45,708 nt of DNA from a virus: positions 1 to 45,708 of the IMG/VR virus record IMGVR_UViG_3300010371_000048; one strand, 5' to 3'. The translations under genes were made by a program, and so were the position numbers. Below the pieces are notes generated by a model that saw only the letters and a program-made list of their open reading frames with translations, made no database searches and was not told where the DNA came from. Positions 20,457-43,817 of this stretch are shown here, one piece after another (positions within the stretch are counted from its first letter, which is position 1; each line of letters starts with the position of its first letter).

Positions 20457-20512
20457 CATGTGGGTTGTTTCGCAGGGTTCAACAGCCTGAATTCGGCTAC
20501 AGTACCCACATG
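20457..20512. other. attP: Probable attP site of the serine integrase
   Basis: A 56-base imperfect palindrome. The outer arms CATGTGGGT (20457-20465) and ACCCACATG (20504-20512) are perfect. By eye, 18 of 28 positions match across the centre (20484-20485), including an inner TTCA/TGAA pair. Length, symmetry and place directly before a large serine integrase gene fit attP. The right arm contains the integrase -10 box and its ATG. The crossover dinucleotide would be near the centre; this was not tested against attL/attR. Confidence 0.65.
20498..20503 (+). promoter_or_regulatory. Integrase promoter -10 box
   Basis: TACAGT lies exactly six bases before the integrase ATG (20510), which suggests a leaderless mRNA. 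The -35 side is weak (GGTTCA region, 20476-20481) and lies across the predicted attP centre, so integration would replace it with host DNA. Confidence 0.5.
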
Positions 20513-21901
20513 TTAGTTCCTGACAAACGCCCGGTCAGAGCCGTGATCTACTGCCGGATGTCCCTGGCCAAGGACGGCGACACCGCGAAAGTGCAGCGGC
20601 AGGAGAAGCGCTGCAGGGCCCTGGCCAAGCGCCTTGGCTGGGACGTCGTGCACGTCTACTGCGACAACAACAAGTCGGCGTGGCAGCGGAACCGGCTGCG
20701 GCCCGACTGGGACGCGATGCTGGCCGCGATCGAGGGCGGCCAGGTCGACGCGGTCATCACCTACCACGGCGACCGGCTGATCCGGCAGCCCTGGGACCTG
20801 GAGAAGCTGCTGAACCTGGCCGACGGCCGCGGGATCAGACTCGCCTCGCCGACCGGCACCCACAACCTCGACGTCGCCGACGACCGCTACCATCTGCGGC
20901 TCGACGTGGCCAAGGCGTGCAACGAGTCCGACACGATCGCCCGGCGCACCCGTGACGCGCATGCCGACCGGGCGGCCAGGGGCAAGCCGCGCCGGGGCGG
21001 CTACCGCTCGTTCGGCTACAAGCGGTCGGGGAAGGTCCACGAGGCCGAGGCCGCGGAGTACCGGAACGCGGTGGCGCGGCTGCTCGCCGGCGAGTCCATC
21101 GCGTCGGTGACGCGGGACTGGAACGCGCGCGGCGTCAGGACGACGCCGGGCAACGAGTGGGTCTACACGTCGCTGGCCGGGATGCTGCGCAACCCGCGGT
21201 ATGCCGGGCTGTCGGTGTACCGCGGGGAGGTTGTGGGCGTCGGGAAGTGGCCGGCGTTGGTGGAGCGGGAGACGTGGGAGGCGCTTCAGACGGTGCTGGC
21301 CGCGCGGTCCGCGCAGCACGGGCCTGCGGCACCGTCGAACCGTGCGCGCCACCTGCTGTCGGGCATCGCCGCGTGCGTGACGTGCGGAGGCGTGCTGCGG
21401 GCGCATCACGGCGCCAGGCAGCTGGCGTACAAGTGCGACGCGCAGGAGTGTGTGCAGCGGGTGCGGCGGAACATGGGGCACCTGGACGAGTACGTGGTCG
21501 GCGCCGTGCTGGCGATGCTGTCCGATGAGGCGCTGGCGGCCCGGTTGGACGCGGCGCGGTCGGGCGAGGGTGCTGCGGCTGCGGCGGAGCTGGCGAGGCT
21601 GGAGGCGAAGCGGCGGCAAACGGTGGCAGAGTTTGCCGACGACGACGGCGTGAGCGCTTCGGATCTGCGGGGTGCGCTGGCGGGGCTGGACGCCAGGATC
21701 GCGGGGGTGCGGGACCGGCTGGGGAAGTTGGCCGGCGCGCATGTGCTGGATGGGTGCGTGGGGCTGTCCCGTGAGGGCTGGGACGGTCTTCCGCTGGATC
21801 GGCGGCGGTCTATCGTGCGCGCGCTGGTGCGGGTAGAGGTGGGGCCAGCGCGGCGGGGGCCGGGCTTCGATGAGCTGTCGGTGCGGGTGTTACCTGCCTG
21901 A
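20510..21901 (+). CDS. int: Large serine integrase
   Basis: Protein of 463 residues that recombines attP with the host attB. The resolvase domain (1-150) begins with AVIYCRMS; S18 is the nucleophile, and the expected arginines follow in HGDRLIR (R89, R92). A recombinase domain follows (about 155-270; motif GYRSFGYK, then GNEWVYTSLAGMLRNPRYAG). A zinc ribbon has cysteines 289, 292, 309 and 314, and a coiled coil lies at about 345-410. This is the normal layout and length. ATG at 20510 is chosen over GTG at 20465 because it fits the resolvase start and the leaderless promoter. The 3' end overlaps a leftward gene by 12 bases. Confidence 0.95.
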   Translation: MLVPDKRPVRAVIYCRMSLAKDGDTAKVQRQEKRCRALAKRLGWDVVHVYCDNNKSAWQRNRLRPDWDAMLAAIEGGQVDAVITYHGDRLIRQPWDLEKLLNLADGRGIRLASPTGTHNLDVADDRYHLRLDVAKACNESDTIARRTRDAHADRAARGKPRRGGYRSFGYKRSGKVHEAEAAEYRNAVARLLAGESIASVTRDWNARGVRTTPGNEWVYTSLAGMLRNPRYAGLSVYRGEVVGVGKWPALVERETWEALQTVLAARSAQHGPAAPSNRARHLLSGIAACVTCGGVLRAHHGARQLAYKCDAQECVQRVRRNMGHLDEYVVGAVLAMLSDEALAARLDAARSGEGAAAAAELARLEAKRRQTVAEFADDDGVSASDLRGALAGLDARIAGVRDRLGKLAGAHVLDGCVGLSREGWDGLPLDRRRSIVRALVRVEVGPARRGPGFDELSVRVLPA

Positions 21902-42632: not shown

Positions 42633-43018
42633 GCGACCTGCCGCACGTCATCGCCGGCCAGCTCGGCGTCAGCGAGGAACACACCCGCATCGTCAAAGCC
42701 TGGTGGCGCAAGCACAACGACGGACCCATGCCCGCGCGGTGGACCGCATCGATGTACAACCAGGCCGTGGACTGGTGGAATAAGGGCGTGCCGGATGAGG
42801 AGGCTTTCCCCAGCATGCTCACGCCCGAAGAGATGAGCAATGCCCTCGATCGCCTGTTCAGCGATACCGAACTCAAGCCGCTGAAGGTTCCCGTCGAGCT
42901 GGTGCGTCGTTTGCCCACGCCCGTACCGACGTATGCCTACCCGATCGAGCTGCCCGGCGGTGCTGAGCTGCTCGCATGGGTCGAGCCCGCCGACGATGAG
43001 AAAGGCGGCGAGCTGTGA
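42629..43018 (+). CDS. Early protein, unknown
   Basis: Protein of 129 residues. The helical first half (VIAGQLGVSEEHTRIVKAWW) includes MYNQAVDWWNKG, and the later part is Pro/Val/Leu-rich with an acidic tail. No family is recognised. Confidence 0.55.
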   Translation: MSDLPHVIAGQLGVSEEHTRIVKAWWRKHNDGPMPARWTASMYNQAVDWWNKGVPDEEAFPSMLTPEEMSNALDRLFSDTELKPLKVPVELVRRLPTPVPTYAYPIELPGGAELLAWVEPADDEKGGEL

Positions 43019-43233
43019 GCGACGGGCAGGAGTACGCGACCGGCGGTCGTGTCGGGCCACCCGGCGGGAAGTCCGGCGTGCAGCTCGGCGATGGCTGCAT
43101 GTGGATCCTGCCGGCGCGCCAGCCGGACGGCAGCATGCGGATCGAGTCCGAGCGCTGCGTGCTGACCTTGATGCCCGTCGCGGTGGAGCACCTGCTCGAC
43201 CAGCTGAAGAATGGCCTGTGGCCGCCGCGCTGA
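43015..43233 (+). CDS. Last gene of the early operon, unknown
   Basis: Protein of 72 residues with Gly-rich start (TGGRVGPPGGKSGVQLGDG), a strand (CMWILPARQ) and a terminal helix (VAVEHLLDQLKNGL). No family is recognised. GTG overlaps the previous stop. The tRNA-like genes follow about 80 bases later. Confidence 0.55.
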   Translation: MSDGQEYATGGRVGPPGGKSGVQLGDGCMWILPARQPDGSMRIESERCVLTLMPVAVEHLLDQLKNGLWPPR

Positions 43234-43316
43234 CCTGCGCTACGCTGGCCCTACCCGTTTGGCGGTGTCGGGCAAACAGCCGCAAGCGACCGGGTCGCTC
43301 CCGGGGACGAATGGTG

Positions 43317-43401
43317 CGGCCTGTAGAGGAACAGGCAGACTCGCTGCTGAGCGCTCAGTAGTAGGCCCCGGCCGGTGCGGGTTCGAATCCCGCCGGGCCG
43401 C
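43317..43401 (+). tRNA. tRNA-like gene 1, class II with abnormal anticodon arm
   Basis: Acceptor CGGCCTG (43317-43323) pairs with CGGGCCG (43394-43400, one G-T). T8-A9 are followed by a GAG...CTC D-stem with the Leu-like loop GGCAGA. A long variable arm with GGCC / GGCC and a perfect T-arm GCGGG-TTCGAAT-CCCGC (43377-43393) are present. The anticodon stem CTGCT / AGTAG encloses eight bases, GAGCGCTC, instead of seven, without the normal T33 and purine 37, and TGAGCGCTCA there is self-complementary. The anticodon cannot be named. No CCA is encoded (ACC follows). It may be decayed or non-standard. Confidence 0.6.
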
Positions 43402-43412
43402 ACCGCCCACCC

Positions 43413-43505
43413 GGGTCCGTAGTTCAGCGGCAGAACACCGGAGGTACGGCGCCCTTCCGCCACGGCGGATGTCCGGTGGCGCGGGTTCGAATCCCGTCGG
43501 ATCCA
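43413..43505 (+). tRNA. tRNA-like gene 2, class I with 29-base anticodon loop
   Basis: Acceptor GGGTCCG (43413-43419) pairs with CGGATCC (43498-43504). T8-A9, a perfect D-stem GTTC / GAAC (43422-43425 and 43433-43436), a four-base variable loop and the T-arm GCGGG-TTCGAAT-CCCGT (43481-43497) are normal. The anticodon stem CCGGA (43438-43442) / TCCGG (43472-43476) is perfect, but it encloses 29 bases rather than seven. Inside is a hairpin TCCGCC / GGCGGA (43456-43461 and 43464-43469). An intron, an insertion in a dead gene or a special-purpose RNA are all possible. No CCA is encoded. Confidence 0.6.
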
Positions 43506-43522
43506 CAAACGTAAAGGCCAAC

Positions 43523-43528
43523 TTGACA
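43523..43528 (+). promoter_or_regulatory. Candidate -35 box after the tRNA-like genes
   Basis: A perfect TTGACA lies 17-20 bases before an AT-richer stretch (GAACATAGCTA, 43546-43556) that could supply a -10 box. It could drive the right-end gene cluster, but the -10 is not clear, and a terminator-like hairpin lies between it and the next gene. Confidence 0.35.
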
Positions 43529-43585
43529 ACCGTCTGACCTGCGGCGAACATAGCTAACGGTAAGCCCCAGAAGACCGCCCACACG

Positions 43586-43612
43586 ACGCCCCGAGCCCAC
43601 CGGCCGGGGCGT
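43586..43612 (+). terminator. Hairpin before the right-end genes
   Basis: ACGCCCCG (43586-43593) pairs with CGGGGCGT (43605-43612) and is followed by TTCG. It probably ends transcription of the tRNA-like region. Confidence 0.65.
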
Positions 43613-43637
43613 TTCGCATACCCGGCGAAGGAGGGCT

Positions 43638-43817
43638 GTGGAGACTTTCCTCCCCGCCGACAAGCTCGCCCTGCTTTACCACGTAGCCGAAGGCAGCATC
43701 CGGCGCTGGGCCAGCAAGGACAAAGTCCGACGCATCGACGGACACGGACGCCGCAGGCTCTACGCGCTCGACGACATGCAGCGCGCCTACGACCGGCGAC
43801 ACCCGGAGCAGCCGTGA
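43638..43817 (+). CDS. Small HTH DNA-binding protein
   Basis: Protein of 59 residues from a GTG with a strong GAAGGAGGG ribosome binding site. FLPADKLALLYHVAEGSIRR, then WASKDKVRRIDGHGRRRLYA, has the form of a MerR/excisionase-type winged helix. It could be a recombination directionality factor or a regulator of the right-end genes; its distance from the integrase makes either uncertain. The stop overlaps the next GTG (GTGA). Confidence 0.65.
   Translation: METFLPADKLALLYHVAEGSIRRWASKDKVRRIDGHGRRRLYALDDMQRAYDRRHPEQP

What the first reader, a model, noticed from the sequence alone, without database searches (positions are those of the whole stretch)
43317..43505. Two adjacent tRNA-like genes, both with broken anticodon loops but intact acceptor and T arms
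Both genes keep fully paired acceptor stems, T8-A9, D-arms and perfect T-arms. Gene 1 has an 8-base anticodon loop, GAGCGCTC, that is part of a 10-base palindrome and lacks T33. Gene 2 has a perfect 5-bp anticodon stem enclosing 29 bases with an internal hairpin. Random decay should damage all arms alike. Damage confined to the anticodon suggests selection for a tRNA-shaped RNA that does not decode, for example a decoy for host anticodon nucleases, a non-canonical intron in gene 2, or a special-purpose RNA.
Basis: partly seen in the sequence, partly recalled or inferred. Interest (0 to 1): 0.75.

Follow-up and report, generated by a model that had tools for sequence, protein, structure and literature searches.

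The report
Phage tRNA bodies without working anticodons
A temperate virus of actinobacteria carries two side-by-side genes shaped like transfer RNAs whose decoding part is unusable, and dozens of unrelated viruses carry similar genes (some with the decoding arm missing altogether), so viruses seem to keep tRNA-shaped RNAs for a job other than reading codons; that job is not yet known.

Summary
Both genes have 7/7 acceptor pairs, T8-A9, a D arm and a 5/5 T arm; gene 1 has an 8-base loop without U33, gene 2 a 29-base loop with its own hairpin. No close relative carries this pair. But related phages carry other tRNA genes near the same early/late junction: normal (Trp, Gln), with a ~40-base or 8-base anticodon loop, or with no anticodon arm.

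A pattern scan of IMG/VR widened this. Of 43 distinct 'armless' hits, 26 have perfect acceptor stems (control 1.1%), 25 different acceptors. All seven acceptor pairs covary. The same pattern gave 0 hits in 395 Streptomycetaceae genomes. In one capsid-gene family the same intergenic slot holds armless, C33-mutant, 5-base-loop and normal tRNAs of four isotypes, or none. So a tRNA body without decoding is kept or repeatedly acquired in phages. I found no description of this in the papers I could search.

Favoured mechanism (inferred, not shown): an RNA-processing element cut by RNase P, like human mascRNA. Decoy and recent decay (a real possibility for this very pair) remain rivals; intron and frameshift tRNA are unlikely. 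Novelty: new variant of a known kind, possibly a new class of phage RNA.

The parts
43317..43401 (+). tRNA-like gene 1: intact acceptor, D (3 bp) and T stems; 8-base anticodon loop without U33; class-II-like variable region
43344..43361 (+). gene 1 anticodon arm CTGCT-GAGCGCTC-AGTAG; can also close as 7 bp with a GCGC tetraloop
   Evidence: sequence
43413..43505 (+). tRNA-like gene 2: intact acceptor, D and T arms; Gly-type D arm; 29-base anticodon loop
   Evidence: (Rfam tRNA 55.5 bits)
43443..43471 (+). gene 2 expanded anticodon loop with internal hairpin TCCGC-CACG-GCGGA at 43456-43469
43290..43304 (+). short hairpin CCGGG-TCGCT-CCCGG upstream of gene 1 (weak; may be chance)
   Evidence: sequence
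43522..43555 (+). conserved promoter-like block CTTGACA..TGACC..GCGAA directly after the pair; same block in relatives L038 and L053
   Evidence: the generic promoter scan did not call it
43587..43614 (+). terminator-like hairpin CGCCCCG...CGGGGCG-TTT between the promoter-like block and the HTH gene
   Evidence: sequence; not called by the T-rich terminator scan
43638..43817 (+). small HTH_17-like protein (weak, E 0.0015), first gene after the block; homologue at the same place in L038

Best explanation
These are two non-decoding tRNA-like RNA genes. The tRNA body (acceptor, D and T arms) is kept; the anticodon domain is replaced by an 8-base loop or extended hairpin (gene 1) and a 29-base loop with its own hairpin (gene 2). 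They belong to a wider, apparently undescribed pattern in phages in which tRNA bodies lose, enlarge or break the anticodon arm. Proposed mechanism (inferred): the body is transcribed as part of a phage transcript and recognised at its elbow and acceptor-T stack by host RNase P (with 3' processing and CCA addition). It thus works as a processing or RNA-end element between gene blocks, here at the junction between the replication/early genes and the late promoter, and the released RNA is a by-product or a stable cap. Shown: body intact, anticodon domain unusable, pattern recurrent with acceptor covariation, location near the junction. Inferred: transcription, RNase P cleavage, and any effect on neighbouring genes.
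For: Related phages carry tRNA genes near the same junction irrespective of isotype or anticodon: Trp(CCA) normal (L044/L099), Gln(TTG) normal plus a ~40-base-loop gene (L005), an 8-base loop (L113), armless (L096); L140 has a 29-base loop. Viral-contig scans: 26 of 43 distinct armless pattern hits have 7/7 acceptors (control 1.1%), 25 different acceptors; 16 of 35 expanded hits have 7/7 (control 0.4%), and 15 of 35 a 5/5 anticodon stem at the canonical place (control 2.7%). In 19 armless genes of 57 nt, 99.3% of pair cells are paired and all 7 acceptor pairs change on both sides. In one capsid-gene family the same slot holds armless genes with a C1-G72/G1-C72 switch, a C33 variant, a 5-base loop, and normal Met, Thr, Asn and Gln tRNAs. 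No pattern hit in 395 Streptomycetaceae genomes; 5 of 5 positive controls hit. 46% of armless genes have a strong hairpin just upstream, against 18% of normal phage tRNAs. Terminase or portal genes lie downstream of several. mascRNA shows that an elbow mimic without a conserved anticodon loop is cut by RNase P and RNase Z (PMC11693755), and RNase P cleaves the phage-phi80-induced M3 RNA and phage C4 RNA (PMC11143913).
Against: No RNA data exist. This pair has no orthologue: L038 (89% terminase) has the promoter-like block but no tRNA. The upstream-hairpin association holds for armless genes, not for the expanded type to which gene 2 belongs (7%), and pooled with them it is not significant against normal tRNAs (p 0.13). 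Predicted free folds of the window genes are not cloverleaves. In L096, L113 and probably L005 the tRNA lies after the terminator-like hairpin, in the window before the promoter-like block, so the place is the same junction but not the same slot. The capsid-family slot is empty in SV1, Mojorita and others, so the element is dispensable. A trans-acting role would leave the same sequence pattern.
Confidence: 0.36

Rival explanations
1. Recently broken phage tRNA genes in decay: each once decoded, lost its anticodon by one event, and has not yet drifted elsewhere.
For: Phage tRNA genes come and go: the closest relatives lack the pair or hold a decayed Thr(TGT) tRNA damaged in several arms (L136), and L137 and L138 are also degenerate. 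Gene 1's 8-base loop and gene 2's insert could each be one event. The predicted free folds are not cloverleaves.
Against: Two neighbouring genes both broken only in the anticodon, with every acceptor, D, anticodon-stem and T-stem pair kept. The recurrent pattern elsewhere, with covarying acceptors after anticodon loss and no hit in host genomes, shows that decay alone does not explain the class.
Confidence: 0.27
2. Trans-acting decoy or mimic: the RNA occupies a host enzyme that binds the tRNA elbow, acceptor or CCA end (a defence effector or tRNA-modifying toxin), protecting the phage.
For: Phage tRNAs are known to counter tRNA-targeting defences (PMC10264068, PMC11555353). The class keeps exactly the acceptor, elbow and T arm, is found in many phages, is accessory, and shows no single aminoacylation identity (mixed 1-72 and 3-70 pairs and discriminator bases).
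Against: In the tested system (retron-Eco7), changing the anticodon abolished protection (PMC11555353). An RNA without an anticodon arm cannot be a substrate of an anticodon nuclease. No defence gene was sought next to it.
Confidence: 0.22
3. Unusual decoders: a +1-frameshift tRNA with an 8-base loop (gene 1) and an intron-containing tRNA (gene 2).
For: Eight-base anticodon loops are known to allow +1 shifting (general knowledge). ARAGORN assigns L113 a 4-base anticodon, cgtt.
Against: Gene 1 lacks U33 and its loop is self-complementary. Gene 2 has no U33 at the start of the loop, and in 12 comparable expanded genes read by eye from the list, T33 is present in about 2. No bulge-helix-bulge was identified, and bacteria are not known to splice such short tRNA introns (general knowledge).
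Confidence: 0.07
4. Aminoacyl donors outside the ribosome: the RNAs are charged by synthetases that ignore the anticodon (Ala, Ser, Leu types) and feed another reaction.
For: Gene 1 has a Leu/Ser-type D arm and a long variable region; some armless genes have G3-U70 (Danklef, L186, L221).
Against: G-U at pair 3-70 in only 3 of 19 aligned armless genes; acceptors and discriminators vary freely; no partner enzyme identified.
Confidence: 0.05

Closest known systems
Canonical phage-encoded tRNAs (e.g. actinophage tRNA genes)
   Same: Acceptor, D and T arms, T8-A9, phage operon setting; the Rfam tRNA model matches gene 2 and armless genes at 37-56 bits
   Different: No usable anticodon: no U33, 8- or 29-base loop, or no arm at all
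mascRNA / menRNA (tRNA-like parts of the human RNAs MALAT1 and MEN-beta)
   Same: tRNA-like body without a conserved anticodon loop; the elbow is enough for RNase P and RNase Z (PMC11693755)
   Different: Human and not homologous; cleavage not tested here; mascRNA has a reduced D arm and a longer anticodon-side stem
RNase P substrates from phages: phi80-induced M3 RNA and the C4 antisense RNA
   Same: Phage RNAs other than tRNA cut by RNase P (PMC11143913)
   Different: Not described as full tRNA bodies in the text read; no sequence comparison was made
tRNA-like domain of tmRNA
   Same: Has an acceptor and T arm and no anticodon (PMC2481249)
   Different: Much larger, mRNA domain in place of the anticodon arm; no tmRNA hit in the window
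Mycobacteriophage tRNAs with anticodon-loop mutations (PMC10264068)
   Same: Phage tRNAs with altered anticodon loops
   Different: Proposed there to be cleavage-insensitive decoders; here decoding itself is lost

Membership tests
Functional (decoding) tRNA | 7-bp acceptor, D arm and 5-bp T arm | tested here: met
   Both genes 7/7 acceptor and 5/5 T stem
Functional (decoding) tRNA | 7-base anticodon loop with U33 | tested here: not met
   8 bases with A33; 29 bases with G33
Functional (decoding) tRNA | Transcribed and charged | not testable with these tools
   No RNA data
Intron-containing tRNA | Normal loop with U33 after removal of an insert next to the anticodon | tested here: not met
   Gene 2 loop begins GG after the stem; U33 also missing in most comparable genes
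Anticodon-armless or anticodon-broken phage tRNA-like set (defined here) | Body paired, no decoding loop, found in phages | tested here: met
   window genes are of the expanded and 8-base type, not armless
Anticodon-armless or anticodon-broken phage tRNA-like set (defined here) | Stem pairing kept in orthologues after loss of the anticodon | tested here: inconclusive
   Met for the capsid-slot armless family and across 19 armless genes; no orthologue of the window pair was found
mascRNA-like RNase P element | RNase P cleavage at the 5' end of the tRNA-like body | not testable with these tools
   Needs a cleavage assay or transcript-end mapping
Anticodon-nuclease decoy | Presents or replaces the cleaved anticodon | tested here: not met
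   No canonical anticodon loop in either gene; relatives without any anticodon arm
Partial tRNA left by integration (attachment-site fragment) | Only the 3' or 5' part of a tRNA, beside a tyrosine integrase | tested here: not met
   Both tRNAs have both ends; the integrase is of the phrog_95/DNA-invertase-like (serine) kind and lies at 20465-21901, over 20 kb away

The most novel reading that the evidence does not exclude
Bacteriophages of many kinds maintain a previously undescribed class of small tRNA-like RNAs (57 nt in the simplest form: acceptor, D arm, 8-nt linker, T arm) in which the anticodon arm has been removed or turned into a variable hairpin, and which act outside translation, as RNase P-dependent processing elements or as decoys for tRNA-binding host enzymes; the window holds a tandem pair of the variable-hairpin form.
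Probability: 0.4. Interest if true: 0.82.

Novelty: new variant of a known kind. Interest (0 to 1): 0.62.

Why it matters
Why phages carry tRNAs has been an open question for over 50 years (PMC10264068), and it has mostly been asked in terms of codons or anticodon nucleases. Bodies kept without any anticodon separate the two halves of the molecule: whatever they do cannot be decoding. A cultured example, Polaribacter phage Danklef_1 (annotated 'tRNA-OTHER', 58 nt, 1.8 kb upstream of the small terminase gene), makes it directly testable by transcript mapping, RNase P cleavage and deletion. It also warns that annotation tools give misleading isotypes to such genes.

Tried and rejected
Orthologues of the pair by DNA similarity in phages and plasmids: none. 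A repeat of the gene 2 loop elsewhere in the window, as an attachment-site or antisense hint: none beyond chance. The loops as short open reading frames (mini-tmRNA): two loops (L144, L005) contain short frames, judged chance. A constant identity element (G3-U70): 3 of 19 only. A fixed place next to terminase: true for several genes but others lie by DNA polymerase, transposase, capsid or integrase genes. A hairpin upstream as a general feature: only for armless genes. Generic promoter and terminator scans: nothing called in the window. Loss of the D arm as a control for neutral arm loss: none seen, against 3 armless in loci not selected for it, too few to be decisive. Literature searches for anticodon-less phage tRNAs: nothing found.

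Full report
WHAT IS THERE. The window is a whole 45,708-base IMG/VR virus record of 69.6% G+C. It encodes a siphophage-type set: large terminase, portal, scaffold, capsid, tape measure, endolysin, a serine-type integrase (phrog_95), methyltransferases, a replication initiation protein and DnaB. Its terminase is 89% identical to one in a Catenulispora MAG contig (L038), so it is a temperate phage of actinobacteria. Gene 1 has a Leu-type D arm and a 15-nt variable region; gene 2 has a Gly-type D arm and a 4-nt variable region. They are therefore not simple copies of each other, although their T arms are nearly identical (23-nt direct repeat, 91%). No gene with coding-type composition covers the pair.

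WHERE IT LIES. The pair sits between a small ORF (43015-43233) and a block CTTGACA..TGACC..GCGAA at 43522. The block is followed by a hairpin with the tail TTTC and then a small HTH protein gene. The same block, hairpin and order occur in L038 (which also has the HTH homologue) and the block and hairpin in L053; similar promoter-like blocks with downstream hairpins occur in L070, L074, L075 and L045. I read this as the late promoter with an attenuator; that is an inference, since the generic scans did not call it. L038 has the block but no tRNA, so the pair is accessory.

RELATIVES. Terminase relatives were scanned for tRNAs; 48 virus records were scanned whole. Near the same junction they hold: normal Trp(CCA) (L044/L099); Gln(TTG) plus a tRNA with a ~40-base anticodon loop (L005); an 8-base loop, ACCGTTAG (L113); and a tRNA with no anticodon arm, TCCGGTG-TA-GCTC...GAGC-11 nt-T arm-CACCGGA (L096). 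L140 has a 29-base loop. Four hits are degenerate (L136, L137, L138, L141). Most relatives have none.

THE WIDER PATTERN. A scan for Gly-type D arms with an enlarged middle gave 23 loci, mostly tRNAs with long variable arms (Ile, Pyl), but also L005, L008 and L011 with enlarged anticodon loops. Scans for the common GCTC D arm gave 40 loci with an enlarged middle and 60 with a shortened one. These patterns fix the D arm and part of the T arm but not the acceptor or the anticodon stem, so pairing there is an independent test. Of 43 distinct shortened hits, 26 have 7/7 acceptor pairs (1.1% when partners are swapped), with 25 different acceptors; the commonest design is 57 nt with an 8-nt linker. 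Of 35 distinct enlarged hits, 16 have 7/7 acceptors (0.4% swapped), and 15 a 5/5 anticodon stem exactly where a tRNA would have it (2.7% swapped). Nineteen 57-nt genes, including one from the cultured Polaribacter phage Danklef_1, align without gaps; 99.3% of cells pair, all seven acceptor pairs show changes on both sides, and the covariation score is 0.644 against 0.148 in shuffles and at most 0.154 when slid. Relatedness inflates such shuffles, but the slid controls keep it. The pattern gave no hit in 395 Streptomycetaceae genomes and hit all five positive-control records.

A SLOT. The armless gene in L186 follows a major capsid gene (phrog_212), one more gene and a strong hairpin. In 80 relatives that slot holds, in about a dozen records: armless genes with acceptors CGGCACG, CGACACG and GGGCACG (a C1-G72 to G1-C72 switch), a full cloverleaf with C33 and otherwise the same body (L244, a plausible ancestor type), a 5-base-loop gene (L251), and normal Met, Thr, Asn and Gln tRNAs. 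The slot carries no annotated tRNA in SV1, REQ3, Mojorita, ToastyFinz and GMA1. What recurs is a tRNA body, not an isotype. Either this is a permissive spot for insertions, or a tRNA body is useful there.

MECHANISM. Three facts shape the choice. First, the conserved parts are the acceptor-T stack and the elbow, which RNase P and RNase Z read; mascRNA is a known element of this kind with no conserved anticodon loop (PMC11693755), and RNase P also cuts phi80-induced M3 RNA and C4 RNA from phages (PMC11143913). Second, there is no fixed aminoacylation identity. Third, armless genes tend to follow a strong hairpin (46% against 18% of normal phage tRNAs), and by inspection many lie shortly before the next start codon. 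A processing role in cis fits all three. For enlarged-loop genes such as gene 2 the hairpin association is absent, so the argument is weaker for this window. A decoy role in trans fits the first two. For the window pair itself, recent decay remains a serious rival because no orthologue exists and close relatives show decaying tRNAs.

LIMITS. The catalogue rests on fixed D- and T-arm patterns and is neither complete nor an unbiased frequency. The number of normal phage tRNAs with the same arms could not be counted. No transcription data were available. Hosts of most IMG/VR contigs are unknown here. The literature search covered open-licence PMC papers only.

Noticed in passing
L242 2995-3052 (Polaribacter phage Danklef_1, MT732458.1 43546-43603): Annotated 'tRNA-OTHER'; it is an anticodon-armless tRNA-like gene directly after a terminator-like hairpin, 1.8 kb upstream of the small terminase gene, in a cultured phage.
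   Followed up: partly
L243, L245, L247-L249, L261, L266 (about 470-480 nt after the capsid match): Orthologous armless tRNA-like genes after a capsid gene and a strong hairpin ending in ..AGCACCA, with compensatory acceptor changes.
   Followed up: yes
L152 590-670 (-): tRNA-like gene whose anticodon arm is a perfect 28-nt inverted repeat (ACCATCTTCGATGG/CCATCGAAGATGGT) with essentially no loop.
   Followed up: no
L009, L019, L020, L023: Phage contigs with tRNAs called Pyl(cta) with long variable arms, possibly amber-reading tRNAs of recoding phages.
   Followed up: no
window 43522-43614; L038 4922; L053 6714; L070 4424; L074 1461: Conserved promoter-like block followed by a short leader and a terminator-like hairpin before the late genes in this phage group.
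   Followed up: partly
L144 12571-12679: Expanded anticodon loop holding a 10-codon frame ATG..TAA ending in the anticodon stem; probably chance.
   Followed up: no
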